This document shows, one piece after another, positions 11,767-58,483 of a DNA stretch of 64,000 bases. The translations under genes and the position numbers were made by a program. The stretch's first letter is position 1, and every line of letters begins with the position of its first letter. Source of the DNA: Dehalococcoidia bacterium (GTDB taxonomy: Bacteria > Chloroflexota > Dehalococcoidia > E44-bin15); assembly GCA_035528575.1 (NCBI GenBank), contig DATKYK010000036.1, positions 1-64,000 on the forward strand. Direction: 5' to 3'. The notes beneath the pieces are model-generated. The model was given only the letters and a program-made list of their open reading frames with translations. It was not told the origin of the DNA and did no database searches.

Positions 11767-12774
11767 ATGGGACCTAAGATCGTTTGCACTATGCCGATTC
11801 TGAGTACTCCCTACCACGATGAAGTTGCCGAGAGTCTGGGTGGCGAGATAATAAGAGTACAGTGCGCCACCGAAGAAGAAGTCATAAATGCCTGTCATGA
11901 TGCTGATGCAGCGATGGGGGCAATAGAGCCCTTTAGCAAACGGGTCATCGACGAACTTGATAAGTGCCAAATAATAGCCCAGTTTTCTGTTGGCCATGAC
12001 CATGTTGACGTTGGGGCAGCTACTGAGCGTGGCATCATTGTTGCCAATGTTCCTGATTATTGTATCGATGAGGTATCTGAACAAGCCCTTACATTCATAC
12101 TCGCCCTCAATCGCAAGATATTTCGCCTCGATAAGGCTGTGCGGAATGGCAAGTGGACAGGGGATGCTATGGGAATTGTGTTCCCGCTTTCCAACATCCG
12201 GGGACAGACACTGGGGCTGGTAGGCTTCGGTCGTATCGCTCGTGCGCTGGCATCGAAAGCACACGCTTTAGGTATGAAAATAATCACCTATGATCCCTAC
12301 ATTCAAGCAGACATGGTCCAGGAGCAAGGGGCTGAGCTAGTAGATTTGAACCAACTCCTCGCCAATTCGGATTTCATTTCCGTTCATGTGCCATATACAG
12401 AGGAGACTCACCACCTATTCGGTTTGGAGCAGTTCAAAGAGATGAAATCCAATGCGTACTTTATAAACACTGGACGTGGTGGACTGGTGGATGAGGCTGC
12501 CCTTCATACAGCTCTCACCGAAGGTTTTATCCAGGGAGCAGCAATCGACGTAATGGAGGAAGAGCCACCCGATTCCAATAATCCGCTATTCGGACTGGAC
12601 AACATCATTATTACCCCTCATACGGGAGCAATGTCCAATACCTCAATGTCGGAGTTAATGCAGCGACCCATCGAAGAGGTGGCCCGCGTCTTTAGAGGTC
12701 AGTGGCCCAATGGCTTTGTGAACCCTGAGGTTAAAGAGCGTTTCATCGCCCGCTGGGGAAAGACTATGGAATAA
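11767..12774 (+). CDS. D-2-hydroxyacid dehydrogenase, NAD-dependent (3-PGDH/CtBP-like)
   Basis: 335-residue D-isomer-specific 2-hydroxyacid dehydrogenase. The nucleotide-binding motif is GLVGFGRIARALASKA with an Asp ending the second strand (ITYDPY). The catalytic Arg is in NTGRGGLVDE, the Glu in IDVMEEEPP and the His in ITPHTGAMSN. TGGAGGGAGAC precedes ATG 11767, 13 bp after the gamma-subunit stop, so it belongs to the same operon. It would reduce a 2-oxoacid to the (R)-2-hydroxyacid, the step before CoA transfer and dehydration in reductive amino-acid fermentation. The 2-oxoacid is then at a branch point, to be oxidised by the upstream oxidoreductase or reduced here. 3-Phosphoglycerate dehydrogenase activity is the alternative, though no ACT domain is present. 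Confidence 0.92.
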   Translation: MGPKIVCTMPILSTPYHDEVAESLGGEIIRVQCATEEEVINACHDADAAMGAIEPFSKRVIDELDKCQIIAQFSVGHDHVDVGAATERGIIVANVPDYCIDEVSEQALTFILALNRKIFRLDKAVRNGKWTGDAMGIVFPLSNIRGQTLGLVGFGRIARALASKAHALGMKIITYDPYIQADMVQEQGAELVDLNQLLANSDFISVHVPYTEETHHLFGLEQFKEMKSNAYFINTGRGGLVDEAALHTALTEGFIQGAAIDVMEEEPPDSNNPLFGLDNIIITPHTGAMSNTSMSELMQRPIEEVARVFRGQWPNGFVNPEVKERFIARWGKTME

Positions 12775-12820: not shown

Positions 12821-13045
12821 ATGATGATGTGTGATATTAGAAGCGGAACCAACGAGGATTGCTTTGTTAAAAGGGTAGTGGACTACTGGCTGCGCAGGAC
12901 ACAAGAGGTGCTGGAGAGGGTGGAAGGATAACTGAAGAAAGAGTCACATATACATCACATCCACATCGCAGATATTGCAGAAAATGATATCAATGTTATA
13001 ATAAGCATGGTCGAGAGTCTAAGTGATGAGTCCCTGACTGGTTGA
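12821..13045 (+). pseudogene. Short reading frame with one internal stop, unknown
   Basis: A 36-codon frame starts at ATG 12821 (two further ATGs follow directly) and ends at TAA 12929. The same frame stays open for another 37 codons to TGA 13043-13045. The first part includes a helix-like segment DYWLRRTQEVLERVE and the second ADIAENDINVIISMVESL. One stop inside an otherwise open ~75-codon frame could be a decayed small gene or chance. No family recognised. It lies between the catabolic operon and the tRNA scar. Confidence 0.25.
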
Positions 13046-13129
13046 AATCCAGGAGTATAAGAAATAGCGAGTTAGGGAGTTAAAATCAGGATTTTAGGCT
13101 CCTCCAGCTACGGAAATACCCCTCAATAA

Positions 13130-13174
13130 CTTTTAATCAGGGTGTCGCGGGTTCGAAACCCGCACGGCTCACCA
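13130..13174 (+). pseudogene. 3' half of tRNA-Lys(TTT), attachment-site scar
   Basis: The sequence from the anticodon loop (CTTTTAA, 13130-13136, anticodon TTT) to CCA is intact: 3' anticodon strand TCAGG, variable loop, a perfect five-pair T stem (13147-13151 with 13159-13163) around TTCGAAA, acceptor 3' strand ACGGCTC, discriminator A and encoded CCA (13172-13174). The five bases before the loop, AATAA, cannot pair with TCAGG, and no D arm or GAGCCGT acceptor strand lies upstream. This is therefore half a tRNA gene, as left at one end of an element that integrated by crossover in the anticodon loop. Confidence 0.85.
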
Positions 13175-13396
13175 GCTATAAAATCACCTTTGTTTGAAGC
13201 CTTTTTCCTCTCAATTTTTACCTAACCAGGCAGTCTTTGTTGCGGAAATCCTTTTGCCGAATCAGGCACTTACTACTTGGGCTTTCGACCATGCTCGTTA
13301 TAGAGATTGTCGGCATTTTTTACAGTATCCGTGGTGTGGGTGTGATGTTTGTGTGATGCGGAAATCTGGTGAAGCGATAGGATAGTTCTCCCGCCA

Positions 13397-13530
13397 TAAA
13401 TCTGCCTGGCTGGGCAATAAAAGCACATATATGCCTGTTACAAAGTGCCTAGTATGCTTTTTATAGTTGGGTGGGAGTTGATCAAAGCAAGGTAACACCA
13501 TGACTATCAAAGACCTGGACCGGTGGGAAT
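13397..13530 (+). repeat. Direct repeat left of FkbM gene, copy 1
   Basis: This segment recurs, slightly diverged and with an indel near its left part, at 14722-14882. Both contain AAGCACAT.TATGCCTGTT, the string CTAGTATGCT and the block AGCAAGGTAA followed by ATGAC.ATCAAAGACCTG. The two copies bracket the FkbM methyltransferase gene. Copy 1 runs directly into the recombinase stub at 13500. Confidence 0.8.
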
Positions 13531-13610
13531 CATTGGAAATGGTGCAGCGGTATACGAGGTCTGTGCGCTTAAGTGATAGCCTGAAATTTCGTAAGCCGCC
13601 ACTGGGTTGA
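13500..13610 (+). pseudogene. Tyrosine recombinase (integrase) C-terminal stub
   Basis: 36 codons from ATG 13500 to TGA 13608-13610 encode the last part of a phage-type integrase. SLEMVQRYTRSVRLSDSLKF corresponds to the block that contains the nucleophilic tyrosine and C-terminal tail of XerC/D-like recombinases. The catalytic Arg-His-Arg portion is missing, so it is not functional. It lies 326 bp after the tRNA-Lys scar, as expected for an integrase next to its attachment site. Confidence 0.75.
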
Positions 13611-13771
13611 AAGCTGTCGTTCTGGGGAACTTTTAAAAAGGGATTTGGCGGTTGGGGGTAAACATAAAAATACGCTACAAAATGCAATCTACGGAGATTC
13701 TTGACATTAGATTAGCCAATAATCTATTCTACATTCAAAAGGAGTAGACTAACGCAAGCATATTATATGAA

Positions 13772-14721: not shown

Positions 14722-14882
14722 CCAAATCCGCCTGGCTTGGCTCTTTTCGCCCATTATAGCGCTTAAGCAGTAACAAGCACATGTATGCCTGTTGCAGAGT
14801 GTCTAGTATGCTCTTTACAGTTAGGGGGGAGTTGATACGAAGCAAGGTAATACTATGACAATCAAAGACCTGGGCAGGTGGC
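14722..14882 (+). repeat. Direct repeat right of FkbM gene, copy 2
   Basis: Second copy of the repeat at 13397-13530. After the shared ATGACAATCAAAGACCTG the frame diverges and stops within a few codons, so the recombinase tail is absent here. The rest of the 14600-15005 gap holds no recognisable gene. Confidence 0.75.
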
Positions 14883-15005
14883 AATGCCTATAGGTTATCC
14901 TTATACTAATCTAGCTAACAGGAAAGGTTTATGGTATCATGGCTATAGCTAGCTTAGCTGTCTATTATGTAAAAGACAGTTACCCTTGGCATGAGAGGAA
15001 GTGCG

Positions 15006-21187: not shown

Positions 21188-21309
21188 GAGACCGCTGAAA
21201 AAGAGGTGCAGGATACTTCCTAACGGGGGTCTGGGGGTGTCCCCCAGCTTTAAAAAGTCCCCCAAGATTGGGGGATTAGGGGGTTGATTGAGAATATTTC
21301 AGCAGTCTC
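21188..21309 (+). mobile_element. MITE-like element, full copy A
   Basis: 122 bp with 13-bp imperfect terminal inverted repeats (GAGACCGCTGAAA ... TTTCAGCAGTCTC) flanked by a perfect 5-bp duplication TAAAG (21183-21187 and 21310-21314). The interior holds palindromic G/C runs around CCCCCAGC and CCCCCAAGATTGGGGG. No coding capacity. Other copies are at 37496 (inverted), 50904, and partial at 45198 and 46299. Confidence 0.85.
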
Positions 21310-24907: not shown

Positions 24908-25334
24908 TATGAAGTTGAAATGCAGCCAGACATGTCAGCACACAGACGATCGGGAAGCTGCGGATAATAGCTAACCCTTCATTTGTTATGTGGGCATTTA
25001 TTTGGAGCCAGCATTATAGTTCAGTGTTGATATACTATGAAGGCAAAAAGCTCTCTCAATAAAATACTTATTGCGATACATTAAGTGTCTTCTTCTTGGC
25101 TTAGGTGATGGCGCAGCATTGTCAGTTGAATCCTATAATAAGTTGAGATCGCGGAAATAATCCGTTAAACTATTGAGGCTACCCCTTACCTATTCTAGGA
25201 TCTGGAGGTTGCGTCACAAATGCGGCAGAACGGATATATGAGCATCATAAAGAATTATAACCTAATGCTATTATCACCCCGACCATGAGTATATAGGAGA
25301 GCATGCTTTGGCCGCAGGTAAAAGTGGAGGAGAT

Positions 25335-26336
25335 ATGACAAATCTTGCCGGAAAACGGTTCTCGGTACAAGAGCCTCCTGAACTCTCAGTAATCATCGTT
25401 AACTGGAATACCAGGGATTTACTTCGTGATTGCCTCAACTCTGTCTATGCTGAGACCAAGGCGACCTCGTTCGAGATCCTTGTTGTGGATAATGCCTCTT
25501 CTGATGGCAGCGCTGAGATGGTAAAAAGGGAGTTCCCACAGGCCAAGCTGACTGAGAATCAGGAGAATCTGGGCTTCGCCAGAGCCAGTAATCAAGCCAT
25601 CATGCAAAGTGTTGGCAATTATGTTCTTTTACTCAATCCAGATGCTGTCGTTCTGTCAAGTGCCCTGGACAAAATGGTCATTTTTATGAGGGAGCATCCC
25701 GCTGTTGATGCATCGGGGCCAATGATATTAAACCCTGCTGGGATACTACAGCCATCTACACGGATGTCGAATATGTTCCGATGCATCAGCATCTTTTTAC
25801 CTGGGGACTGGTTAGCTACTTACCCTCTAAGAATGTTAGTAAAGAAACTGATTATGAAATTTGGCAAAAAGGAGACCTATAGCACTAATCCCTACCAAGT
25901 GGGTTCGTTAAGCGGGGCTTGTATTATGATGACAAGGCAGGCAGTAGACAAAGTGGGTTTGCTTGATGAACGATATTTTATCTACGCGGAAGAAGTCGAC
26001 TGGTTTTATAGACTTAAGCAACTGGGAGGGAAAGCCTACTTTGTTCCGAATGCGCGGATAACCCACCATCATGGACAAAGTACTAAGCAAACTAACGACA
26101 ACTATAAATACTTTTTACAAAGTAAGTACCTGTTCATAAAGAAGCACCACGGGAAAAGGGCGGCGTATTTTTTCAGAATCACGTTTGCAATTGATTCCCT
26201 TGTTACAATTTGTGCCTTTTTACTGCTACAGGTATTGGCCAAAGGAGAGAGGCGTAACGAAGTAAAAGGCACAGTGAGGTCTCTCTGGCGAGCATTACTA
26301 TGGGGGATAGGGAGCAACAAAGGCGGTGCTAATTAA
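25335..26336 (+). CDS. Family 2 glycosyltransferase, rhamnosyltransferase (WbbL)-like
   Basis: 333-residue GT2 enzyme. ELSVIIVNWNTRDLLRDCLN, VVDNASSDGSAEMV, ENLGFARASNQAI and VLLLNPDAVV (DxD equivalent) are the rhamnosyltransferase-type blocks; SGACIMMTRQAVDKVGLLDE and YAEEVDWFYRLKQLG follow; a C-terminal hydrophobic helix (SLVTICAFLLLQVLA) may tether it to the membrane. ATG 25335 follows GTGGAGGAG. It is a paralogue of the gene at 29782; the two share long stretches of near-identical DNA and the same upstream flippase relic. Confidence 0.92.
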   Translation: MTNLAGKRFSVQEPPELSVIIVNWNTRDLLRDCLNSVYAETKATSFEILVVDNASSDGSAEMVKREFPQAKLTENQENLGFARASNQAIMQSVGNYVLLLNPDAVVLSSALDKMVIFMREHPAVDASGPMILNPAGILQPSTRMSNMFRCISIFLPGDWLATYPLRMLVKKLIMKFGKKETYSTNPYQVGSLSGACIMMTRQAVDKVGLLDERYFIYAEEVDWFYRLKQLGGKAYFVPNARITHHHGQSTKQTNDNYKYFLQSKYLFIKKHHGKRAAYFFRITFAIDSLVTICAFLLLQVLAKGERRNEVKGTVRSLWRALLWGIGSNKGGAN

Positions 26337-26399
26337 AAGGCTTGACCTTGTCCAGTTAAGGATGGTGATAGAGATCTTGGGGTGATTCATGTTTTTCCC

Positions 26400-26504
26400 C
26401 CAGGCAAACTGATGTTACGGACGTTAGATAAGGTATCCTCCTGGATTGCTTATGCTAGCGTTCTTTGTAAGGGTAGGTCACTAAAGGGCGAACAGAGCCC
26501 CTAA
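26400..26504 (+). pseudogene. C-terminal stub of a SAM methyltransferase
   Basis: About 34 codons ending at TAA 26502 encode PGKLMLRTLDKVSSWIAYAS and VLCKGRSLKGE, matching the last residues of the intact methyltransferase at 53123-54055 (PGKLISRILDCISPWIAC, then VGRSLKGE). The match continues into the 3' flank up to the pyruvyltransferase gene. It shows that this segment and 54.0 kb derive from one ancestral arrangement. Confidence 0.8.
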
Positions 26505-26535
26505 GCTAATGTTCCTTTTAATAACGTCGATTCTA

Positions 26536-27789
26536 TTATCCTGTAGTATCAATTCTCCATCCAAGTTGTACTAGCTTATCCACTACTATTCTAGTCGTCT
26601 TTCTGGAGTCCTCTTTTAATATTGGATTTATGGCTCTGAGCCGCTGCTTAACTATGTCATAGTTTTGTTCCAAGATTTTGAATGTGTTGATAATCTCGCC
26701 TGCGCTTATGCTTTCAACATGTATGGAGAAATCTGTGAAGCCCACCTTTCGGGCGAATCCCTGAGCTTTGTGCTCGTAATATATGGATATAAATGGGGTA
26801 TTTCCCTTAGCAGCAAATACAACCGGGTGATATCTCATACTTATAAGGCAAAACAGCTTGGAAATTAATATTTGCTGTCCGTAAGAATCAATATCTGGAG
26901 GGCAAATGTGTATTCGCTCTTTATCCAACTCCCGGATGCTCTCCAGTAGCTGAGTATCGTTAACTTCTCCAAAAAGCTGAGGTATAAGCAATACGGAATA
27001 TCCTTTTTCAATCAGGTAGTTAGCAACCTCCGAGCAACTGGCCATTATCCTCTCCGCCATTCCTTCAACATCTCTATACCTGTTATGCCATTTTAGATCT
27101 GTTACTACCATGCCAATCGTTCTTTTCCCATTAATCAATTCCAATATCTCCGAAATACCGTCATACTTCTCTAAGTAATTTTCGGGTATGTCATTTTGGA
27201 AAGCAGAGTCCAAAGTTGCTCGCGCTTCCAATCCCAGCTGGTCCTTTAGGTATCCCAGAGAAATCTCTTCCCTGAGTATTATGGCGTCTGCCTTCTTGAG
27301 TATGAATCTTCTAGCTGTATTCCTGAATCTATCCACGAATGGCCCCATCGAAGGTGCATAGAAGAACAACGGCTTTTTCTTAAACACCTTCGCCACCAGT
27401 AGCCAGTACAGAGAACATGAGTCACCTAGCAACCCGCCACCATACAAATCGCCAATGCTCGGACCACCCGGAGCATGAATCACTATGTCAGCTTCATTTA
27501 CCGCCTGGAGGAATCTCCTCCCTCGCTTGATAAGCGATAATCTCCCACATGTTAAGATATTGAATACGGCATCTACAAGGTCCACTGTACGGTGCCGCCC
27601 TAACAAGACCATTGGGTAAGGCTCAAGTATTTCTATATCATCGTAAGGGAACCACGCATCTCTTGCTGCCAGAAGCATGATGCTCATTTTCTGAACGGGA
27701 ATTTCTGCTCTTAAGGACTCAATCATCGCCCTTATCGCGGCTTCGTCACCTCGATTGTACCAGTTAGCGCGCAAGATTAGAATGTTCAA
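26536..27789 (-). CDS. Polysaccharide pyruvyl transferase family protein, copy 1
   Basis: 417-residue protein of the pyruvyltransferase (CsaB/WcaK-type) family, which ketalises glycans with pyruvate from phosphoenolpyruvate. It begins ILILRANWYNRGDEAAIRAM (the N-x-GDEA start of the family), with DIVIHAPGGPSIGDL as the conserved glycine-rich block, LFFYAPSMGPF, and near the end CLISMRYHPVVFAAKGNTPF, where the R-H pair is conserved. The start is TTG 27789, and the paralogue at 57233 also uses TTG behind a similar site. Ten base pairs separate it from the upstream F420-type gene, so they are co-transcribed. Two further copies exist: 57233 (intact) and 54110 (broken). Confidence 0.92.
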   Translation of the reverse strand: MNILILRANWYNRGDEAAIRAMIESLRAEIPVQKMSIMLLAARDAWFPYDDIEILEPYPMVLLGRHRTVDLVDAVFNILTCGRLSLIKRGRRFLQAVNEADIVIHAPGGPSIGDLYGGGLLGDSCSLYWLLVAKVFKKKPLFFYAPSMGPFVDRFRNTARRFILKKADAIILREEISLGYLKDQLGLEARATLDSAFQNDIPENYLEKYDGISEILELINGKRTIGMVVTDLKWHNRYRDVEGMAERIMASCSEVANYLIEKGYSVLLIPQLFGEVNDTQLLESIRELDKERIHICPPDIDSYGQQILISKLFCLISMRYHPVVFAAKGNTPFISIYYEHKAQGFARKVGFTDFSIHVESISAGEIINTFKILEQNYDIVKQRLRAINPILKEDSRKTTRIVVDKLVQLGWRIDTTG

Positions 27790-27799
27790 TGTATTTCAC

Positions 27800-29152
27800 T
27801 TAATATTTATCAAAATCCTTATTTATCACCCTGTGGTACAGAATACGGAAATAACCTACATACATACGTAAAACCCGGAGAGGGATATTTCTCAGCAGAA
27901 ACTTGCCTAACTCGCAAGAGGTGAGACGACTGTTTGTAAACGCTATTGCTCCTATAAGTATATTCGGCAGGCTAGCCCCTGTCCTTGAACACGTATATGT
28001 TTCCCTTTTCCAGAACTTCGGCAACCCCTTACGCCAGTTGAGATTCACCTTTTTAAAATGCAGGAATACCTTTTGTGATCTGATGACATCCCTGGCATTT
28101 GATACCTCCAATTCAACTGCCCCCGCAGAATTTGCTGCATGTAGTAGTGCTTCACCTCGCTCTGACCTAGATATCACTACAGATTTACCCTTGTGCTCCG
28201 CTTTTATTATCTCCGGCAGCCAGGGATCGCCAAAGGAAATATCAGCCAGTTCATTGGTCACGTCACCGCATGAAAGGCAGCATGATGGGGTAAAGAAAAA
28301 ACCGCCGAAAATATTGTTCCATAAAGAACCTCGGTTAGGGAGAAACCTCTCGCCTCCATTTTTCAACCTTATCCCTATTCCTCCGGGCCACCCTCCTCCG
28401 CGATAGGATATTTCTATAAACTCTTCACTTCTGATGCCGAGCTTCCTCAGCAGGAATTCGGTGCCATCAAAGCTGACCGTATGCGAACAGAAAATCCCCA
28501 AATGGAGGCTTATTCTCTCTCTTAGCGTCTTGCTAACTGCTTCGGCCTTTCTAATACCATAAATGTGACAAGGGAGCCCTACAACCGCATATTTCCCATC
28601 TTTTTGGAGAATTTCCCTGATAGCAATGTTTGCCGGTACAGGACAGTATTTGGAGCCTAAGGCCAGAAGTATATCTTCTCTCGTTCTCGCTATAAAGGGC
28701 TCGGGGGCCAAAGGATTATCTTTCTTCATCCTCGTCACCAGCGCGCCATCAATGAAGCCCTGCTCTAGGGCAAAGATCAACAATGAAGTCACCAGTCCAC
28801 CTGATGCTGAATTGTACCTGATCTCGGAATCAGTGGCATGAGCGAGGTAACAGCCGATGTAGTTGCCCAGCAGGCTGTCTTTCGGCTCTTTACCAAATAC
28901 CTCTAGGTTCAGCCCGGCCAGGTTAACGAAATATCCGGGGCAGGCCTTAACACAAATCCCACATTGGTTACACTCGCCCTCAATCAATTCCGGCAAATAT
29001 ATACCTTTTCGTATATCATATCTCATGCGGATAGCCGAAGTAGGGCAAATACCCACACAGGTTCCGCAGCCGGTGCAAAGACCGCTTTTCATTACCTGCT
29101 TAACAGTGCCAGATACTTTAATTGCTGTCCTTTCCTGCTCCGTACGTGGCAA
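27800..29152 (-). CDS. Coenzyme F420 hydrogenase/dehydrogenase beta-subunit family protein, copy 1
   Basis: About 450-residue iron-sulfur flavoprotein-like enzyme. Two N-terminal [4Fe-4S] sets are CTGCGTCVGIC and CNQCGICVKAC; the FrhB N-domain follows (YNSASGGLVTSLLIFALEQG, VVGLPCHIYGIRKAE), then the C-domain with CCLSCGDVTNELADISFGDP. Family members oxidise or reduce F420 or related flavins; those inside glycan loci, next to pyruvyltransferases, have no proven role and are thought to alter a sugar redox state. The start is uncertain (TTG at 29152 is the frame opening). Paired with the pyruvyltransferase just downstream; the same pair recurs at 57-60 kb. Confidence 0.9.
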   Translation of the reverse strand: MPRTEQERTAIKVSGTVKQVMKSGLCTGCGTCVGICPTSAIRMRYDIRKGIYLPELIEGECNQCGICVKACPGYFVNLAGLNLEVFGKEPKDSLLGNYIGCYLAHATDSEIRYNSASGGLVTSLLIFALEQGFIDGALVTRMKKDNPLAPEPFIARTREDILLALGSKYCPVPANIAIREILQKDGKYAVVGLPCHIYGIRKAEAVSKTLRERISLHLGIFCSHTVSFDGTEFLLRKLGIRSEEFIEISYRGGGWPGGIGIRLKNGGERFLPNRGSLWNNIFGGFFFTPSCCLSCGDVTNELADISFGDPWLPEIIKAEHKGKSVVISRSERGEALLHAANSAGAVELEVSNARDVIRSQKVFLHFKKVNLNWRKGLPKFWKRETYTCSRTGASLPNILIGAIAFTNSRLTSCELGKFLLRNIPLRVLRMYVGYFRILYHRVINKDFDKY

Positions 29153-29189
29153 TCATCTACCAATTACCATGGTTAGTCCGACGAGCCTG

Positions 29190-29585
29190 CCCTGTATAAA
29201 TAATGTGACCTCCAAGTAAAAGCAACATAATCGCTAACCAGCCACTCGCCATTATAGAGTAATAACATCAATAATTCTAATTGATCGCATCTAGATAAAC
29301 CCCTAAAAGCGCGACAAGCATTGCGGACTGGGCGATGATTACCAGTTATTGTATCTGCGCTATACCTGTAGTATGGCAAAGCAAACAATGTTCACACTTA
29401 TAAATACGTTTGAAAAGCTTGGAAGATCTGCATAATATACTAACATGGTTTGTTTATAACAGAGGAGATAATAACCGGGGACACCACGCCTTTAAATTGA
29501 TTCAATCATGCTTAGAAGCAAGAGGGTAAAGAGGTTTTTTCTCTCGTCTGTCAATCACTATGAAACTGGAAATCATGCCAGAAAA
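29190..29585 (-). pseudogene. Decayed Wzx-type flippase, remnant 2
   Basis: Homologous DNA to remnant 1 but with several stops and frameshifts. On the minus strand SFSNVFISVNIVCFAILQ (aligned to SFSNVFMGMNSVCYTILR) is followed, in other frames, by LVALLGVYLDAI and SGWLAIMLLLLGG, which read like transmembrane helices of the same transporter. The upper part (29440-29585) aligns with 24780-24940 without clear coding. The rest of the 29153-29781 gap shows nothing else. Confidence 0.6.
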
Positions 29586-29781
29586 TCTAAATCCAGGGGT
29601 GTTACAATAATCCGGGGGCAGGTCAACTTTTTTATATTAGGCTGTTACGGATTGTTTCTAAAAAATTCGCTAAAAGATATATGAGAGAAATTTCCTTAGG
29701 ATTATGCCCTGATGCTGTGATATCTATTGTATAATATGTATCATAAAGCATGATTTGACCGCAGGTAAAGTAGGAATAGGT

Positions 29782-30777
29782 ATGACCAATCTTGCTCCAC
29801 AAAGGTCCTCAGTAAAAGACCATCCTGAACTCTCAGTAATAATCGTTAACTGGAATACCAGGGATTTACTTCGTGATTGCCTGAACTCTGTCTATGCTGA
29901 GACCAAGGCGACCTCGTTCGAGACCCTTGTTGTGGATAATGCCTCTTCTGATGGCAGCGCTGAGATGGTAAAAAGGGAGTTCCCACGGGCCAAGCTGATT
30001 GAGAATAAAGAGAATCTGGGCTTTGCGAGAGCCAACAATCAAGCCATCAGGCAGAGTAGTGGCAGATTCATTCTATTACTTAATTCAGATACTGTTGTTC
30101 TCTCAGGTGCCCTGGACAAAATGGTAGCCTTTATGAAGGCGCACCGTGCTGTCAGTGCATCGGGACCAATGCTATTAAACCCTGACGGATCACTCCAGCA
30201 ATCCACTTTAGGTAGTTTGGGTAATTTCAACTTCGTCCGCTTTCTAATTATTGGTAGTGATTTTTTGGTTGCCTATCTTCCAAAATTGCTGTTAAGGAAA
30301 ATAGGTAAAAAGGAAACTTATAGCCCTCAACCCCGACAAGTGGGTGGAGTATCTGGGGCTAGTATGATGATAACCAGAGAGGCAATAGATAAAGTAGGTT
30401 TACTCGATGAGCAATACTTTTTCTTTATGGAAGAGGTCGACTGGTTTTATAGGCTTCAGCAATTAGGTGGGGTAGTATACTTTGTCCCTGAGGCACAAAT
30501 AATCCACCATTTTGCTCAAAGTATAAACCAGACTGATAACAGGTCCAAATATTTACACGAAAATAGGTACCGGTTTATAAATAAATACTATGGGAAAATG
30601 CGCGGGTGCTTTTTCAGAATCATGCTGGTAATTGACTCCTTTTTTATAATTTGTGCCTTTTTGCTGCTACAAGCATGGGTTAGAGGAGATAAGCGCAAGG
30701 AAATAAACTGGAGATTGAGGTGTCGCTGGAGAACATTACTTTGGGCTATTGGAAGCAACAAAGGCGGTTCTAATTAA
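29782..30777 (+). CDS. Family 2 glycosyltransferase, rhamnosyltransferase (WbbL)-like, paralogue
   Basis: 331-residue paralogue of the gene at 25335. The N-terminal 120 residues are almost identical (SVIIVNWNTRDLLRDCLN, VVDNASSDGSAEMVKREFP, ENLGFARANNQAI, LLLNSDTVVL), while the middle (residues ~140-190, GSLGNFNFVRFLIIG region) differs strongly, as expected if acceptor specificity has changed. C-terminal hydrophobic helix FFIICAFLLLQAWV. ATG 29782 follows TAGGAATAGG; the frame also opens at TTG 29755. Confidence 0.92.
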   Translation: MTNLAPQRSSVKDHPELSVIIVNWNTRDLLRDCLNSVYAETKATSFETLVVDNASSDGSAEMVKREFPRAKLIENKENLGFARANNQAIRQSSGRFILLLNSDTVVLSGALDKMVAFMKAHRAVSASGPMLLNPDGSLQQSTLGSLGNFNFVRFLIIGSDFLVAYLPKLLLRKIGKKETYSPQPRQVGGVSGASMMITREAIDKVGLLDEQYFFFMEEVDWFYRLQQLGGVVYFVPEAQIIHHFAQSINQTDNRSKYLHENRYRFINKYYGKMRGCFFRIMLVIDSFFIICAFLLLQAWVRGDKRKEINWRLRCRWRTLLWAIGSNKGGSN

Positions 30778-37495: not shown

Positions 37496-37620
37496 GAGAC
37501 TGCTAAAATAGTCTCAGTCAACCCCCTAATCCCCCAATCTTGGGGGACTTTTTAAAGCTGGGGGACACCCCCAGAACCCCCGTCCCGATTATATCGGGGC
37601 ACCTCTTTTTCAGCGGTCTC
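37496..37620 (-). mobile_element. MITE-like element, full copy B (inverted)
   Basis: 125 bp, same element as copy A in the opposite orientation, ending in GAGACTGCTAAAA and TTTTTCAGCGGTCTC, with a perfect 5-bp target duplication TATCT (37491-37495 and 37621-37625). It differs from copy A by a substituted palindromic block, CCCGATTATATCGGG. The 37621-37823 remainder shows no gene. Confidence 0.85.
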
Positions 37621-42879: not shown

Positions 42880-43243
42880 CCGCTTTCAACCCGATGCTTC
42901 TAGGTCTATACCGTCCCAGGATATTAGACTAGCACTGATGCCGCGCACGGTCAAGCGCCAAGCCAGCTCGGCTATGGCCTACCGCTCGTGCGACCTCTAG
43001 CGCATTAATTCCCCTTTTCCCTTTAGTCATTATGAGTTCTCGCGCACCGCCGCGGTCAAGGAGATGAATCCAGCCCCCGCACATATAGACCGTCACCACC
43101 GCGGCCACTCCCACATTGTGTTCTTAAACCTACCAGGAACCCGTTATCAAGACGTCCATTAGTATTATCTTCACTTCTAAACCAGATGATGATTAAGCTG
43201 GATGTCCTTAGTTGACCCATCCTTTCTGTAAGTTGGCCTATAT
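42880..43243. other. Gene-free spacer, GC-rich in its first half
   Basis: A 61-codon minus-strand frame at 42929-43114 shows no family resemblance and no ribosome site. The stretch separates the ABC transporter from the tandem glycosyltransferase array. Nothing else recognised. Confidence 0.5.
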
Positions 43244-44179
43244 TTACTTGCTTTGCCTATTGACTAGCCCCGCCAAGATCCCTCCAGCCATATTAAGCGC
43301 CCATAGAAAGCACCTGAGCTTCATTTTCACAAAGACGGACAACTTCCGGGGCCGCGGTTTCACAAACAAGAACTTGGGGCTAGGTTCCAATAAAGCCCTG
43401 ACTAGAGTGCGGGTTATATCTAACGTATACCAAAGCAGCACCTTCGGTAAATATCTCGGGTAATACTTCTTAAGTATCAGAATATGATTTCTACAGAGTA
43501 AGTAGTTAACCTCCATCCGTGGTATGCTTGGCTCCAGATAATGCGCAACCAGTTTTTCGGGAAACATACATGCTTTATAATCCGTTTCAGCCTGGAGTCT
43601 CAGGCCAAACTCAACATCTTCGTGGTACATACGGTAGTTCTCGTCAAAAAGCCCTATCCGGTCAAAAACATCCTTCCTATAAAAGGGGGCAGTTCCGGCA
43701 ATCCAATCTACCGGGCGTATTCCCTGAAAATCATCCGTCAGGTTCACCGGAAGCCCCCCTTTAAAACTCCCTCCGGTGAACCAGTTATCTCCATCCTGAT
43801 CTACCATGATACAGGATAATACACCTATGGAACCGTCGGCATCCAGGATTTCGACGTTTCTCTCCACAAAATTGCTTTTCACCTCAGTGTCTGCATTCAG
43901 CAGGCAGATATATTCTCCCTTTGCCAGTCCGATCCCTTTGTTGCAGGTTTTAATGAAACGCATGTTTTCGGTGTTTTCAACCAGGCGCATGTTTCTATGG
44001 TCTTTGATAAATGTTTCAATGTACTCCACTACTGACCTGTCCGGCGTGGCATCGTCTATGATTATGACCTCATAATCACCAAATGTCTGATCTGTAATGC
44101 TCGGCAGCAGTCTTTTTAAATATTCCTTCTGATTGTAGTGTGGGATTATGATGCTAACCTTACACATGCTGTTTTCCAT
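43244..44179 (-). CDS. Family 2 glycosyltransferase, tandem paralogue 1
   Basis: 311-residue GT2 enzyme, one of four tandem copies. KVSIIIPHYNQKEYLKRLLP, IIIDDATPDRSVVEYIETF, ENTENMRFIKTCNKGI and YICLLNADTEVKSNFVERN (DxD region) lead to GDNWFTGGSFKGGLPVNLTD and the block NYRMYHEDVEFGLRLQ. The C-terminus is shared with the other copies and ends LVNRQSK. Copy 1 shares its N-terminal allele with copy 2 but has its own segment YLEPSIPRMEVNYLLCRNH around residue 225. ATG follows AAGGGGCAGA. All four transcribe leftward and are separated by 40-140 bp. Confidence 0.93.
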   Translation of the reverse strand: MENSMCKVSIIIPHYNQKEYLKRLLPSITDQTFGDYEVIIIDDATPDRSVVEYIETFIKDHRNMRLVENTENMRFIKTCNKGIGLAKGEYICLLNADTEVKSNFVERNVEILDADGSIGVLSCIMVDQDGDNWFTGGSFKGGLPVNLTDDFQGIRPVDWIAGTAPFYRKDVFDRIGLFDENYRMYHEDVEFGLRLQAETDYKACMFPEKLVAHYLEPSIPRMEVNYLLCRNHILILKKYYPRYLPKVLLWYTLDITRTLVRALLEPSPKFLFVKPRPRKLSVFVKMKLRCFLWALNMAGGILAGLVNRQSK

Positions 44180-44216
44180 TCTGCCCCTTGCAGTTTTCGC
44201 TTCATTTAGCCCATGT

Positions 44217-45155
44217 TTACTTGCTTTGCCTATTGACTAGCACTGCCAAGATCCCTCCAGCCATATTAAGCGCCCATAGAAAGCACCTGAGCTTCATTTT
44301 CACAAAGAGGAACAACTTCCAGGGCCGCGGTTTCACAAACAAGGACAAATTGGGGGTAGGTTCCAATAAATCCCTGACTAGAGTGCGGGTTATATCTAAC
44401 GTGTACCAGAGCAGCACCTTCGGCAAATATCTCGGGTAATACTTTTTAAGCATCAGAATATGATTTCTACGGGCTAAGTCGTACATTTCACGCAATGGTA
44501 TGCTCCCCGCTAAATAGTGCGCGACCAGTTTTTCGGGAAACATACATGCTTTATAATCCGTTTCAGCCCGGAGTCTCAGGCCAAACTCAATATCTTCGTG
44601 GTACATACGGTAGTTCTCGTCAAGAAGTCCTATCCGGTCAAAAACATCCTTCCGGTAAAAGGGGGCAGTTCCAGCGACGAAATCTACCGGGCGTATTCCC
44701 TGAAAATCGTCTTTCAGGTTCACCGGAAGCCCCCCTTTGAAACTCCCTCCGGTGAACCAGTTATCTCCGTCCTGGTCGACTATCACGCAGGATAACGCAC
44801 CTATGGAACCGTCGGCATCCAGGATTTCGACGTTTCTCTCCACAAAATTGTTTTTCACTTCAGTGTCTGCATTCAGCAGGCAGATATATTCTCCCTTTGC
44901 CAGTTCGATCCCTTTGTTGCAGGTTTTGATGAAACGCATGTTCTCGGTGTTTTCGACCAGGCGCATGTTTCCATGGTCTTTGATAAATGTTTTGATGTAC
45001 TCCACTACTGACCTGTCCGGCGTGGCATCGTCTATGATTATGACTTCATAATCAGCGAATGTCTGATTTGCAATGCTCGGCAGCAGTCTTTTCAAATATT
45101 CCTTCTGATTGTAGTGTGGGATTATGATGCTAACTTTACACTTGCTGTTTTCCAT
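44217..45155 (-). CDS. Family 2 glycosyltransferase, tandem paralogue 2
   Basis: 312-residue GT2 enzyme, nearly the same as copy 1 over residues 1-220 (KVSIIIPHYNQKEYLKRLLP, YICLLNADTEVKNNFVERN, HEDIEFGLRLRAETDYKACM). It differs in the short segment YLAGSIPLREMYDLARRNH and in a few positions near the C-terminus. Start is ATG 45155 after CAGGGGGCAGA, aligned with copy 1; the upstream frame extension to 45173 is not used. Between copies 2 and 3 lies a partial MITE-like element. Likely adds a sugar to the same kind of acceptor as its paralogues. Confidence 0.92.
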   Translation of the reverse strand: MENSKCKVSIIIPHYNQKEYLKRLLPSIANQTFADYEVIIIDDATPDRSVVEYIKTFIKDHGNMRLVENTENMRFIKTCNKGIELAKGEYICLLNADTEVKNNFVERNVEILDADGSIGALSCVIVDQDGDNWFTGGSFKGGLPVNLKDDFQGIRPVDFVAGTAPFYRKDVFDRIGLLDENYRMYHEDIEFGLRLRAETDYKACMFPEKLVAHYLAGSIPLREMYDLARRNHILMLKKYYPRYLPKVLLWYTLDITRTLVRDLLEPTPNLSLFVKPRPWKLFLFVKMKLRCFLWALNMAGGILAVLVNRQSK

Positions 45156-45197
45156 TCTGCCCCCTGCAATCACGCCGGCTTGCCCCGCCTGCAGCCA

Positions 45198-45235
45198 CCC
45201 CGATAAAATCGGGGCACCTCTTTTTCAGCAGTCTC
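45198..45235 (+). mobile_element. MITE-like element, partial copy D
   Basis: Only the outer end of the element is present: CCCCGATAAAATCGGGG hairpin, then CACCTCTTTTTCAG and the terminal GCAGTCTC. It sits in the spacer between GT2 copies 2 and 3, with the same flank (GGATGAGGATTAAGCCGTAG) as partial copy E. Confidence 0.75.
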
Positions 45236-45296
45236 CGGATGAGGATTAAGCCGTAGAACCTGGGATGACCCGTATTTCGCTTCAGTTAGCCCATGT

Positions 45297-46259
45297 TTAC
45301 TTGCTTTGCCTATTGACTAACCCCGCCAAGATCCCTTCAGCCATATTAAGCGCCCATCGAAAGCACCTGAGCTTCATTTTCACAAAGAGGAACAACTTCC
45401 AGGGCCGCGGTTTCACAAACAAGGACAAATTGGGGCTAGGTTCCAATAAAGCCCTGACTAGAATGCGGCTTATATCTAACGTGTACCAGAGCAGCACCTT
45501 CGGCAAATATCTCGGGTAATACTTCTTAAGTGTCAGAATATGATTTCTACAGCCTAAGTAATACACTTCCTTAATTATTATGCGCATCTCTTCTGAACAG
45601 TCCACACTTGGTTTATTGTGTACAACCAGTTTTTCGGGAAACACACATACTTTATAATCCGTTTCAGCCCGAAGTCTCAGGCCAAACTCAATATCTTCGT
45701 GGTACATATGGTAGTTCTCGTCAAAAAGCCCTATCCGGTTAAAAACATCCTTCCTGTAAAAGGGTGCAGTTCCAGCGACGAAATCTACCGGGCGTATTCC
45801 CTGGAAATCATCCGTGAGGTTCACCGGAAGCCCCCCTTTAAAACTTCCTCCGGTGAACCAGTTATCTCCATCCTGGTCGACTATTACGCAGGATAACGCA
45901 CCTATGGAACCGTCGGCATCCAGGATTTCGACGTTTCTCTCCACAAAATTGCTTTTAACCTCAGTGTCCTGGTTCAGCAGGCAGATATATTCTCCGTTTG
46001 CCAGTCTAATTCCTTTATTGCAGGTCTTCACAAAACCCAGGTTCTCTCCATTCTCAATCAACCGCATGTTTCTATAGTCTTTGATAAATGTTCTTACATA
46101 TTCCAACACTGACTCATCCGGTGAAGAATCATCTATGATGATAACTTCGTAATCGTTAAATGTCTGATTTGCAATGCTTGGCAACAGCCTTTTTAAATGT
46201 TCCTTTCCATTATAGCTCGGGATTATTACACTGACTTTGTTCCCGCCTTGTTCCATCAT
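45297..46259 (-). CDS. Family 2 glycosyltransferase, tandem paralogue 3
   Basis: 320-residue GT2 enzyme. N-terminal allele differs from copies 1-2 and matches copy 4: ENGENLGFVKTCNKGIRLA and YICLLNQDTEVKSNFVERN. The middle (DADGSIGALSCVIVDQDGDN, GGSFKGGLPVNLTDDFQGIR) is common to all four. It carries the longest variant segment, HNKPSVDCSEEMRIIIKEVY then YLGCRNH, about nine residues longer than in the other copies. C-terminus again LVNRQSK. ATG follows GGAGGGAT. Confidence 0.92.
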   Translation of the reverse strand: MMEQGGNKVSVIIPSYNGKEHLKRLLPSIANQTFNDYEVIIIDDSSPDESVLEYVRTFIKDYRNMRLIENGENLGFVKTCNKGIRLANGEYICLLNQDTEVKSNFVERNVEILDADGSIGALSCVIVDQDGDNWFTGGSFKGGLPVNLTDDFQGIRPVDFVAGTAPFYRKDVFNRIGLFDENYHMYHEDIEFGLRLRAETDYKVCVFPEKLVVHNKPSVDCSEEMRIIIKEVYYLGCRNHILTLKKYYPRYLPKVLLWYTLDISRILVRALLEPSPNLSLFVKPRPWKLFLFVKMKLRCFRWALNMAEGILAGLVNRQSK

Positions 46260-46298
46260 ATCCCTCCACGGCCACGCCGGCTCACTATTCCTGCAGCC

Positions 46299-46337
46299 AC
46301 CCCGATTTTATCGGGGCACCTCTTTTTCAGCAGTCTC
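46299..46337 (+). mobile_element. MITE-like element, partial copy E
   Basis: CCCCGATTTTATCGGGG hairpin followed by CACCTCTTTTTCAG and GCAGTCTC, as in partial copy D, in the spacer between GT2 copies 3 and 4. The shared flanks show that it was duplicated together with the glycosyltransferase gene. Confidence 0.75.
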
Positions 46338-46398
46338 CAGATGAGGATTAAGCCGTAGACCCCGGGATGACCCGTACTTCGCTTCAGTTAGCCCATGT

Positions 46399-47334
46399 TT
46401 ACTTGCTTTGCCTGTTGACTAACCCCGCCAAGATCCCTTCAGCCATGTTAAGCGACCATGAAAGCCACAAGCGCTTCCATTTCACAAAGAGGAACAACTT
46501 CCACGGCTGCGGTTTCACAAACAGGAACCTGGGGCCAGGTTTCGATATAAAACTGACTAGAAAACGGCTTATTTCTAACGTATACCAAAGCAGCACCTTC
46601 GGCAAATATCTCGGGTAATACTTCTTAAGTATCAGAATATGATTTCTACAGCTAAAGTAGTATACTTCACTCCTTGGTATGCTCCCCGCTAAATAGTGCG
46701 CGACCAGTTTTTCGGGAAACATACATGCTTTATAATCCGTTTCAGCCCGGAGTCTCAGGCCAAACTCGATATCTTCGTGGTACATACGGTAGTTCTCGTC
46801 AAAAAGCCCTATCCGGTCAAACACCTCCTTCCTGTAAAAGGGGGCAGTTCCAGCGACGAAATCTACCGGGCGTATTCCCTGAAAATCGTCTTTTAGGTTC
46901 ACCGGAAGCCCCCCTTTGAAACTCCCTCCGGTGAACCAGTTATCTCCGTCCTGGTCGACTATCACGCAGGATAACGCACCTATGGAACCGTCGACATCCA
47001 GGATTTCGACGTTTCTCTCCACAAAATTGCTTTTAACCTCAGTGTCCTGGTTCAGCAGGCAGATATATTCTCCGTTTGCCAGTCTAATTCCTTTATTACA
47101 GGTCTTCACAAAACCCAGGTTCTCTCCATTCTCAATCAACCGCATGTTTCCATGGTCTTTGATAAATGTTTTGATATACTCCAGTACTGACCTATCCGGT
47201 GAAAAATCATCTATGACTATGACTTCATAATCAGCGAATGTCTGATTTGCAATGCCCGGCAGCAGCCTTTTCAAATATTGCTCTCCATTGTAGTGTGGGA
47301 TTATGATGCTAACCTTACAACTGCTGTTTTGCAT
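46399..47334 (-). CDS. Family 2 glycosyltransferase, tandem paralogue 4
   Basis: 311-residue GT2 enzyme. It combines the copy-3 type N-terminal allele (ENGENLGFVKTCNKGIRLA, LLNQDTEVKSNF) with a copy-2 type segment after residue 220 (HYLAGSIPRSEVYYFSCRNH) and a C-terminal part of its own (EISRFLVSFISKPGPRFLF, WKRLWLSWSLNMAEG) before the common LVNRQSK. The patchwork points to recombination among copies. ATG follows CAGGAACTAGA. First gene of the leftward array. Confidence 0.92.
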   Translation of the reverse strand: MQNSSCKVSIIIPHYNGEQYLKRLLPGIANQTFADYEVIVIDDFSPDRSVLEYIKTFIKDHGNMRLIENGENLGFVKTCNKGIRLANGEYICLLNQDTEVKSNFVERNVEILDVDGSIGALSCVIVDQDGDNWFTGGSFKGGLPVNLKDDFQGIRPVDFVAGTAPFYRKEVFDRIGLFDENYRMYHEDIEFGLRLRAETDYKACMFPEKLVAHYLAGSIPRSEVYYFSCRNHILILKKYYPRYLPKVLLWYTLEISRFLVSFISKPGPRFLFVKPQPWKLFLFVKWKRLWLSWSLNMAEGILAGLVNRQSK

Positions 47335-50903: not shown

Positions 50904-51026
50904 GAGACCGCTGAAAAAGAGGTGCAGGATACTTCCTGCCAGGGGTCTGGGGGTGTCCCCCAGCTTTAAAAAGTCCCCCAAGATTGGGGGATATAGGGGG
51001 TTGATTAAGACTATTTCAGCAGTCTC
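50904..51026 (+). mobile_element. MITE-like element, full copy C
   Basis: 123 bp, same orientation as copy A and nearly identical to it. Terminal repeats GAGACCGCTGAAA and TTTCAGCAGTCTC; flanking pentamers GTCAT and GTTAT differ at one base, consistent with an aged 5-bp target duplication. It lies in the spacer of the deoxysugar operon and separates the epimerase from the RmlD-like gene. Confidence 0.85.
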
Positions 51027-53122: not shown

Positions 53123-54055
53123 ATGCAGATGCTATTTTACTTTGATAACAACCCCGAATGCACGATATGGGATGGTATGTGGACTGTGAGGACCATTGAA
53201 CAGGAACTGGAGGCTTGTGACATAGAATCGCCTCCAAGAGAGCTGTTTCTATCCTATCTGCCTAAAGAAGGCAAGATTGTGGACGCCGGCTGTGGGCTGG
53301 GCAAATGGGTTAATTATCTTAAACAGCGGGGGTATGACATCGTAGGTATAGATAACAGCGAGCTTGCTGTTGCCAAACTTAAAAATTTCGATGAGTCCCT
53401 CCAGGTGGAATTGGGGGACATACTGGATATCCATTATCCCGATAGCTCTCTGGATGCGTACATATCTATGGGAGTAGTTGAGCATTTTGAAGACGGCCCG
53501 ACCCCGGCCTTGAAGGAAGCTTATAGAGTCCTGAAACCAGGTGGGTTAATATTCGTCTCTGTACCAACTGTAAATGTCATCAGGAAGCTTGTCAGGCGGC
53601 CGCTTCGAAATGCAATCAACACGGTTCCCAGGTCACTTATGGTGAAACTCAGGTTGTGTTGGGGGGGGTTGAAGCGCCATTCGATTCGTGCCGCAATAAA
53701 CGCTATTCTACCGGAGACAGTAAAGGGCCTATTGCTGGGGAAAAGAAGTAGAGGTAAAGTAAGTATAGGTAAATATTACCATTTTATAGAGTACAGGTAT
53801 TCAAAGGCTGAGTTGGAAGACTTCCTGAAGCAGACCGGTTTCGAGGTAATCGAAACGATACCTCATGATTTCTATGATTCAAAAGATCATGCAATAGGAT
53901 TGGTGGTGGATTTCCCGTTCCTGGGAGCCCGCAACGGGGTTAATTTCCAGCTTACTCCTCCCGGCAAACTGATATCAAGAATTTTAGATTGCATATCTCC
54001 CTGGATTGCCTGTAATAGCGTTATCTGCGTAGGTAGGTCACTGAAGGGCGAATAG
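53123..54055 (+). CDS. Class I SAM-dependent methyltransferase
   Basis: 310-residue methyltransferase. GKIVDAGCGLGKWVNYLKQR is motif I and YDIVGIDNSELAVAKL motif II; DAYISMGVVEHFEDGP and EAYRVLKPGGLIFVSVPTVN are motifs III-IV. The C-terminal ~120 residues form an extra domain. The last 30 codons and the 3' flank are duplicated at 26400-26530, next to an intact pyruvyltransferase; here the flank leads into a broken pyruvyltransferase. Probably methylates a glycan sugar or lipid intermediate. Plus strand, no strong ribosome site at ATG 53123. Confidence 0.9.
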   Translation: MQMLFYFDNNPECTIWDGMWTVRTIEQELEACDIESPPRELFLSYLPKEGKIVDAGCGLGKWVNYLKQRGYDIVGIDNSELAVAKLKNFDESLQVELGDILDIHYPDSSLDAYISMGVVEHFEDGPTPALKEAYRVLKPGGLIFVSVPTVNVIRKLVRRPLRNAINTVPRSLMVKLRLCWGGLKRHSIRAAINAILPETVKGLLLGKRSRGKVSIGKYYHFIEYRYSKAELEDFLKQTGFEVIETIPHDFYDSKDHAIGLVVDFPFLGARNGVNFQLTPPGKLISRILDCISPWIACNSVICVGRSLKGE

Positions 54056-54109
54056 AACCCCTAAGATAATGTTCTTTTTAATGAAATTGATCGTATTCTA
54101 TTATCGTAT

Positions 54110-54467
54110 CAATTCTACATCCAAGTTGTACTAGCTTATCCACTATGATTCTGGTCGTCTTTCTAGCCTCCTCTTTTAGTGCTGGATTCATGGCTCCGAG
54201 CCGCTCTTTGACCGTGTCGTAGTTTTACTCCAGGACTTCGAATCTGTTGGTAATCTCGCCTGCGCTTATATCTTCTACATTGATCGTGAAATCTGTGACG
54301 CCCACCTTTTGTGCGAATCCTTCAGCTTTGTGCTCGTAAGGTATGGATATAAATGGCGTATTTACTTTGGCAGCAAGTACAACCGGATAATATCTCATAC
54401 TTATGAGGCAAAACAGCTTGGAAATTAATACCTGCTGCCCGTAGGAATCTACATTCGGGGGCAGGTC
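54110..54467 (-). pseudogene. Broken polysaccharide pyruvyl transferase, copy 3
   Basis: Minus-strand DNA closely matching the 3' third of the pyruvyltransferase genes at 26536 and 57233. A TAA replaces the CAA codon in the motif FEVLEQNYDTV (on the plus strand TTTTACTCC against TTTTGTTCC), and homology ends abruptly at about 54467 where GGGGGCAGGTCAC joins unrelated sequence. It lacks the N-terminal two thirds and cannot be functional. Confidence 0.9.
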
Positions 54468-54518
54468 ACTTGGGCTTCAGGAATTTTTAATCTGACTGGA
54501 TAATATTTTTTAATTGTT

Positions 54519-55100
54519 CTACTGTTTTTTAAAAAAAGCGATACATTTGCCTGGAATTGCGATGTATAAAGGCCTCATAGTTATAATTCTCGGGGCTACC
54601 GCAACAATTCTCTCTTCCGATATCCCTAACTTGGATTTATTTTTTGATATTTTTTTTATGACTTCAGCATCTTCCATCGCCGTCCAATCTTCTATCACGT
54701 AATAACCACCGGGAGCAACATAATTCCATAAAACATTAAAGCAATTTTCAGTTTCCTTTTTTTTATGGAAACCATCATCAATTATAATATCGAATGCCCC
54801 ATATTTTTCAGCAATATTCTTTAATCCATCGCTATCGTTCTGATTACATTTACACATTACAACTTTATTATGGAAAGAACCGTCGGGAAGATTTATGTCA
54901 ATTCCAATAATCTTTGTTTCAGGATTCTTGAAAAAATGTGCCCAGTATCTAAGGGAGTCGCCCTTCCAAATTCCAATCTCTAAAAGAGTCAATTTATTAT
55001 GCCTAATTTTTTCTATAATAGGCCAATAATCAAAAATTAACCTCTGCCTCACCTTATCGATATAGCAATACCTAATTAAATCATATATTTTATAAAACAT
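54519..55100 (-). CDS. Class I SAM-dependent methyltransferase
   Basis: 193-residue methyltransferase. LTLLEIGIWKGDSLRYWAHF is motif I, KIIGIDINLPDGSFHNKVV motif II, DIIIDDGFHKKKETENCF and APGGYYVIEDWTAMED follow, a layout shared with macrocin-type and CmcI-type sugar O-methyltransferases. It is the most AT-rich gene in the window, suggesting separate acquisition. ATG 55100 overlaps the stop of the upstream CmcI-like gene by one base (TAATG), so the two are translated together. Confidence 0.85.
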   Translation of the reverse strand: MFYKIYDLIRYCYIDKVRQRLIFDYWPIIEKIRHNKLTLLEIGIWKGDSLRYWAHFFKNPETKIIGIDINLPDGSFHNKVVMCKCNQNDSDGLKNIAEKYGAFDIIIDDGFHKKKETENCFNVLWNYVAPGGYYVIEDWTAMEDAEVIKKISKNKSKLGISEERIVAVAPRIITMRPLYIAIPGKCIAFFKKQ

Positions 55101-55834: not shown

Positions 55835-56149
55835 GCATTATATCAAAACCTTTTAGGCAAGGAAATACTACGTGGAATATCTAGCTGGTCGAGGAAGAGC
55901 ACACAACACGTCTTACGCTTGCTAACCCCCTAAATCGCCAGACTCTCATTGAGGTCTGTCTATAGCTGGGAATAGATGTTAAGCATCGCCACATTGGCTG
56001 ATATATTAAATCTCCATATCATGAAGGAAGCTCGGTTAGCTTTTGGAAGGGCGTCATGGTGGTTTTCTTAATCGCCTATAAGGCTTCCAATCCCATAGGC
56101 TTACCAAAGATGGTTCTGATAATTCCAATTGGTTTATGACGCGTATACG
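55835..56149. other. Gene-free spacer
   Basis: No minus- or plus-strand frame with family resemblance. Presumed promoter region for the CmcI-type gene. Nothing else recognised. Confidence 0.45.
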
Positions 56150-58477: not shown

Positions 58478-58483
58478 TGCATT

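What the first reader, a model, noticed from the sequence alone, without database searches (positions are those of the whole stretch)
13130..13174. Half a tRNA-Lys gene marks the left edge of a genomic island
Sequence from the anticodon loop to encoded CCA is a perfect tRNA-Lys(TTT) 3' half, but the 5' half is missing and the bases before the loop cannot pair. Tyrosine recombinases of many islands cross over exactly in the anticodon loop, leaving one full and one half tRNA. Gene content changes from a catabolic operon to a glycan locus at this point.
Basis: partly seen in the sequence, partly recalled or inferred. Interest (0 to 1): 0.72.

Follow-up and report, generated by a model that had tools for sequence, protein, structure and literature searches.

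The report
Displaced tRNA-Lys fragment at island end
The half tRNA-Lys gene is real and is the kind of fragment that mobile DNA islands leave behind when they insert into tRNA genes; it most likely closes an island on its left side rather than opening one on its right, and a family of the same island ends is scattered through this Dehalococcoidia genome and its relatives.

Summary
Confirmed: 13130-13174 is a tRNA-Lys(TTT) 3' half from anticodon loop to CCA (41 of 43 bases equal the intact G004 gene; next best match in the window 24). No tRNA is called in the window. It is not isolated: a conserved ~190-bp block (12943-13129) runs into it, and copies of that block in this genome and three relatives run into 3' halves of Lys(TTT), Arg(TCT) or Gly(TCC), some decayed. 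Intact examples in relatives show the parent system: those three tRNA genes, followed by four TCAC repeats at exact 11-bp spacing and a tyrosine integrase gene; the block carries the same repeats. So this is an attR-type end of an anticodon-loop integrating island (known kind, apparently undescribed family). Right of the half lie an inverted block and a 37-aa integrase tail, so a second element remnant touches the site; the glycan locus is not shown to be an island. No intact tRNA-Lys(TTT) is in the assembly, but neither is mfd, its neighbour in two relatives, so that locus is probably unassembled.

The parts
13130..13174 (+). tRNA-Lys(TTT) 3' half: anticodon loop CTTTTAA (13130-13136), variable region, T arm, acceptor 3' strand, CCA; displaced fragment (B' side of the attachment site)
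   Evidence: sequence; 41/43 identity to the intact G004 gene; matches to relatives' intact tRNA-Lys(TTT); no complete tRNA called
13119..13146 (+). Inferred attachment core CCCCTCAATAACTTTTAATCAGGGTGTC region; crossover inferred within the anticodon loop
   Evidence: conserved across copies; similarity of the shared right flank of G009:C52 and G001:C185 becomes continuous from here; crossover point inferred, not shown
12943..13129 (+). Conserved dispersed block, read as the P arm (right end) of the integrating element
   Evidence: nhmmer hits to the block in own genome, G001, G004 and G009
12944..12969 (+). Three arm-type repeats at 11-bp spacing: TCAC 12944, TCAC 12955, TCGC 12966 (third decayed)
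   Evidence: TCACx3 arrays occur 20 times at 11-bp period and never at periods 8-10 or 12-15 in all DNA held
12975..13002 (+). Promoter-like pair TTGCAG-N16-TATAAT reading towards the half; weak candidate only
   Evidence: conserved in most block copies, but the consensus scan of this region gives no excess over shuffles and does not list it
12870..12928 (+). Detached 3' tip of a TPR regulator-like gene (..YWLRRTQEVLERVEG*), a dispersed repeat just before the block
11767..12774 (+). D-2-hydroxyacid dehydrogenase gene, last gene of the catabolic operon and last intact gene on the inferred element side
   Evidence: Pfam PF00389/PF02826
13254..13356 (-). Inverted partial copy of the block: end of a second, oppositely oriented element or remnant
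   Evidence: nhmmer 48 bits; 75% over 95 bp
13500..13610 (+). Detached C-terminal tail (37 aa, with the catalytic-tyrosine motif QRYTRS) of a tyrosine integrase
   Evidence: 81-86% identical to the C-termini of the 377-aa integrase at own C21:37.4-38.5 kb and of a G002 integrase
13412..13466 (+). Short dispersed repeat found on its own at many sites and fused to the integrase tail here and elsewhere

Best explanation
The site is an attR-type junction left by an integrative element (genomic island) of a tyrosine-integrase family that crosses over in the anticodon loop of tRNA genes with loop CTTNNAA (Lys-TTT, Arg-TCT, Gly-TCC). Integration at the native tRNA-Lys(TTT) gene, or at an earlier displaced fragment, restores a whole tRNA at the integrase end with sequence carried by the element, and leaves the old 3' half at the far end. 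The conserved block left of the half is the element's P arm (TCAC repeats at 11-bp spacing, read as integrase arm-binding sites). Shown: the half, the block family, matching intact tRNA - TCAC array - integrase loci in relatives, exchange of flanks around this kind of junction. Inferred: binding of integrase to the TCAC array, crossover within the loop, extent of the element (left of 13130, with the catabolic operon as likely cargo), loss of mobility here. The inverted block and integrase tail on the right are remnants of a second element.
For: tRNA half confirmed. Block copies run into 3' halves of Lys, Arg and Gly tRNAs. Intact counterpart loci: G001:C205 mfd - tRNA-Lys(TTT) - TCACx4 - integrase; G001:C129 tRNA-Arg(TCT) - TCACx4 - integrase; G006:C35 tRNA-Gly(TCC) - TCACx4 - truncated integrase frame; own C14 tRNA-Gly(TCC) - TCACx4 with no integrase seen: the same three tRNAs as the halves. 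TCAC triplet arrays: 20 at 11-bp period, none at seven other periods. Flank exchange: G009:C52 and G001:C185 share the right flank at about 90% while left flanks differ; G009:C52 and G001:C75 share the left gene while right flanks differ. Left-side operon is 91-96% identical at DNA level in G001 and 93% in G004, other genera, against 77-82% for a syntenic stretch of C22 and G001:C75. G034:C58 shows the complete arrangement in the same class: intact tRNA-Lys, 7.7 kb with an integrase gene, 3' half.
Against: No intact tRNA-Lys(TTT) and no integrase are linked to this half in the assembly, so the other end of the element was not seen. G004 and G009 carry block copies but only one or two integrases, which look like Xer type, so many blocks must be remnants. 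The pseudo-halves of several copies are decayed. In G001 the same operon is followed by a different block variant, so block and operon are not a fixed unit. The promoter-like pair is not above chance. Other shared stretches between these genomes reach 87-92%, so the operon's identity is only modest evidence of transfer.
Confidence: 0.8

Rival explanations
1. The half marks the left (integrase-proximal) end of an island on the right, carrying the glycan genes; for example an internal junction of two tandem islands, with island 1 on the left and island 2 on the right.
For: In intact sites the order is tRNA, arm repeats, integrase, all on one strand, and in the window an integrase C-terminal tail on the + strand lies 330 bp right of the half. 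The glycan region has few close matches in relatives. Tandem islands are known in Dehalococcoides (PMC3146451).
Against: The right-hand arm repeats are an inverted P-arm block, not the direct-orientation arm that follows intact tRNAs. The integrase tail belongs to another integrase type (like C21) and recurs as a detached repeat elsewhere. No further tRNA-Lys half closes the right side.
Confidence: 0.2
2. The block plus half is only a dispersed repeat spread by homologous or illegitimate recombination, with no element end at this place today.
For: Blocks lie in intergenic regions, mostly without a nearby integrase; decayed halves are copied along with the block; gene tips (TPR, integrase) recur as detached repeats; the same operon is followed by different block variants in the window and G001:C86.
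Against: The half here is undamaged and base-paired, and halves of three different tRNAs follow homologous blocks, each cut at the anticodon loop, which fits site-specific exchange; intact tRNA - TCAC array - integrase loci exist for exactly those three tRNAs.
Confidence: 0.15
3. A functional split tRNA-Lys gene (halves transcribed apart and joined) or an intron-interrupted gene.
For: No intact tRNA-Lys(TTT) in the assembly; the half keeps CCA and a paired T stem; a conserved sequence precedes it.
Against: Relatives in the same family carry ordinary intact tRNA-Lys(TTT) genes; no consensus fold in the upstream block (RNAalifold about -0.9 kcal/mol); no Rfam hit; the same block precedes halves of Arg and Gly tRNAs whose intact genes are present in this genome; mfd is missing as well, which points to an assembly gap.
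Confidence: 0.02

Closest known systems
tRNA-gene genomic islands with anticodon-centred attachment sites (type A of the Islander database, PMC4383910)
   Same: 3' tRNA fragment starting in the anticodon loop, tyrosine integrase, arm repeats, intact tRNA restored at the integrase end (seen in relatives)
   Different: One family with related integrases and arms uses three tRNA genes (Lys, Arg, Gly), and many ends are left behind without an integrase
ssrA genomic islands of Dehalococcoides (PMC3146451)
   Same: Same bacterial class; repeated integration at an RNA gene leaving a series of 3'-end repeats; cargo of catabolic genes
   Different: Those use serine recombinases (DsiA/DsiB) and a 20-bp ssrA repeat; here tyrosine integrases and tRNA anticodon loops
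ICEclc (intB13, tRNA-Gly; promoter Pcirc at the far end of the element, PMC2892462)
   Same: Tyrosine integrase, tRNA target; possible outward promoter at the end distant from the integrase
   Different: The promoter here is only a weak candidate and no conjugation genes were found

Membership tests
tRNA-targeted tyrosine-integrase genomic islands | Displaced 3' tRNA fragment starting at a known subsite (anticodon loop) | tested here: met
tRNA-targeted tyrosine-integrase genomic islands | Cognate intact tRNA on the same replicon, upstream and in the same orientation | tested here: inconclusive
   Not found in the own assembly, but mfd, its neighbour in two relatives, is missing too
tRNA-targeted tyrosine-integrase genomic islands | Integrase gene within the island interval | tested here: inconclusive
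   The window starts at the contig end, so the left end of the interval is not seen; only a 37-aa integrase tail lies right of the half. Homologous sites in relatives carry the integrase
tRNA-targeted tyrosine-integrase genomic islands | Repeated integrase arm sites near the core | tested here: met
   TCAC repeats at 11-bp period in the block and in the arms next to integrase genes; binding itself not testable
tRNA-targeted tyrosine-integrase genomic islands | Excision and integration activity | not testable with these tools
   No reads or cultures; only flank exchange between species
Dehalococcoides ssrA islands | Serine recombinases DsiA/DsiB and ssrA 3' repeat | tested here: not met
   The fragment is tRNA-Lys, and the linked integrases in relatives are PF00589 tyrosine recombinases
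Split or trans-spliced tRNA | Conserved structure joining the halves and no ordinary gene in the lineage | tested here: not met
   No consensus fold; ordinary tRNA-Lys(TTT) genes in relatives

The most novel reading that the evidence does not exclude
The blocks are not just debris: they act as portable attachment modules, so that same-strand genes or operons with a block at their 3' side move as cassette-like units between tRNA-derived sites, mobilised in trans by a few integrases, somewhat like integron cassettes with attC. In every copy checked the block follows a gene on the same strand, and in G009:C24 a three-gene operon lies between two blocks in the same orientation.
Probability: 0.12. 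Interest if true: 0.75.

Novelty: new member of a known kind. Interest (0 to 1): 0.38.

Why it matters
It identifies a family of mobile-island ends in subsurface Dehalococcoidia, with its core, arm repeats and linked integrases, that can be searched for by sequence and explains a series of odd tRNA fragments in these genomes. It also corrects the direction of the island: the catabolic operon, not the glycan locus, is on the element side. The fact that homologous sites exist for Lys, Arg and Gly tRNAs makes it possible to study how an integrase lineage changes its tRNA target.

Tried and rejected
Split tRNA or structured RNA: RNAalifold on 12 block copies gave about -0.9 kcal/mol, single fold z -1.0, no Rfam match. 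Promoter or terminator function: scan not above shuffles. Viral origin: two exact patterns (arm array, core) found nothing in the viral contigs. Second Lys half in the own genome: none within 3 mismatches over 35 bases. Integrase within the element in this window: none, only a tail right of the half. Own-genome integrases near TCAC arrays: none in the loci checked. An initial reading of the right-hand inverted block as the P' arm of a complete attP was dropped, because P' arms next to intact tRNAs have the repeats in direct orientation.

Full report
Observation. Positions 13130-13174 read CTTTTAATCAGGGTGTCGCGGGTTCGAAACCCGCACGGCTCACCA: anticodon loop with TTT, T arm with a perfect 5-bp stem, acceptor 3' strand and CCA. 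No tRNA is called in the window by ARAGORN and Rfam gives nothing. The best match of the intact G004 tRNA-Lys(TTT) 3' half in the window is here with 41 of 43 bases; the next best place has 24. The T stem differs from that gene by a compensated pair, so the piece comes from a working tRNA-Lys. Pfam confirms catabolic genes to the left and sugar-coat genes to the right.

The surroundings are the real finding. The 190 bp before the half is a conserved block. Copies exist in the own genome (C14, C9, C24, partial C22, C40) and in relatives G001, G004 and G009. Most run, at the anticodon loop, into a tRNA 3' half, but not always the same one: Lys(TTT)-type in the window, C14 and several G001 and G009 copies, Arg(TCT) in C9, Gly(TCC) in C24, G001:C182 and G009:C24. 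Several Lys-type halves are decayed; the one in the window is not. In the copies listed with a gene upstream (about 14) the block lies on the same strand as that gene, 3' of it. The first titled relatives are Dehalococcoidia MAGs.

Mechanism. In G001:C205 an intact tRNA-Lys(TTT) next to mfd is followed by four TCAC repeats with exact 11-bp spacing and then by a tyrosine integrase gene. G001:C129 shows the same with tRNA-Arg(TCT) and G006:C35 with tRNA-Gly(TCC), there with a truncated integrase frame; own C14 has tRNA-Gly(TCC) with the array but no integrase seen. These are the same three tRNAs whose halves follow the blocks, and their loops share CTTNNAA. Arrays of three TCAC at 11-bp period occur 20 times in the DNA held, and none at periods 8-10 or 12-15; the held set was chosen around these sites, so this shows the regularity, not a genome-wide frequency. 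The block carries the same array (window 12944, 12955, 12966 with the third decayed). The block is therefore best read as the far arm of the element, and the half as the displaced B' fragment. Binding and crossover themselves are inferred.

Which side is the island? Integration moves a 3' fragment downstream, so the island lies 5' of it (Islander, PMC4383910). Relatives agree: G009:C52 and G001:C185 have the same right flank at about 90% from the core onward but unrelated left flanks beyond the block, and G009:C52 and G001:C75 share the left gene but not the right flank. In the window the left side holds the operon, which is 91-96% identical at DNA level in G001 and 93% in G004, two other genera, against 77-82% in a syntenic stretch; other shared stretches reach 87-92%, so this is modest support. 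In G004 and in L134 the operon ends without a block; in G001 it is followed by a different block variant. G034:C58 gives a complete example in the same class: intact tRNA-Lys, 7.7 kb with an integrase gene, then a 3' half.

Right of the half. An inverted partial block (13254-13356) and a detached 37-aa integrase tail (13500-13610) separate the half from the glycan genes. The tail belongs to a different integrase type (own C21, 377 aa) and is fused to a short dispersed repeat that occurs in other places too. So another element has touched the site, but this is not enough to call the glycan locus an island; it has few close matches in relatives.

Missing intact gene. The own assembly (45 contigs, 96% complete) has Lys(CTT) but no Lys(TTT) and no second copy of the 35-mer within 3 mismatches. 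Because mfd, the neighbour of tRNA-Lys(TTT) in G001 and G004, is also absent, the native site is probably in an assembly gap. The window begins at the contig start, so the left end of the element cannot be seen.

Known or new. The kind is known: anticodon-centred tRNA islands are 2083 of 3919 in Islander. Dehalococcoides has a comparable system at ssrA with serine recombinases (PMC3146451). I did not find this tyrosine-integrase family described in the few searches made, which is weak evidence that it is undescribed. An outward promoter in the arm, as Pcirc of ICEclc (PMC2892462), is possible but the scan gives no support.

Verdict. A real, well-explained feature: the trace of a site-specific island, on the opposite side from the one proposed, and a member of a family of such ends. 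Interest is moderate.

Noticed in passing
window 21188-21309 (also 37496-37620 inverted, 50904-51026): A ~120-bp repeat with long self-complementary G/C runs occurs in many copies in the own genome and in G004; it looks like a miniature mobile repeat.
   Followed up: no
window 12870-12928: The last ~17 codons of a TPR regulator-like gene recur as a detached repeat at C24, C40, C41 and C22 as well as at the ends of real genes.
   Followed up: partly
window 13412-13620 and 14767-14885: A short dispersed repeat fused to the last 37 codons of a tyrosine integrase recurs in the own genome and in G001 and G007, partly truncated.
   Followed up: partly
L172:6463-7596 (own C21) and L198:904-1998 (G002): Open frames of tyrosine integrases that read, at their start, through the reverse complement of a tRNA 3' half (Phe, Arg), so the gene abuts or overlaps its attachment site.
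   Followed up: no
own C22:40090-40199 (L004): A hybrid half: Lys-type core joined to the 3' end of another tRNA (CACCCCGACCA, Pro-like), as if two neighbouring halves had recombined; G001:C75 keeps both apart.
   Followed up: partly
window 43182-47334: Four tandem, 88-98% similar copies of a ~310-aa gene at 976-1101 bp spacing.
   Followed up: no
window 25300-30777 and 53956-59905: Repeated glycan-locus genes: 25300/29747 pair (about 90%) and 26396-29152 against 53956-59905 (73-85%).
   Followed up: no
own C16:95509-98661 (L130): Intact tRNA-Arg(TCT) followed by two tandem integrase genes without the TCAC arm array.
   Followed up: no
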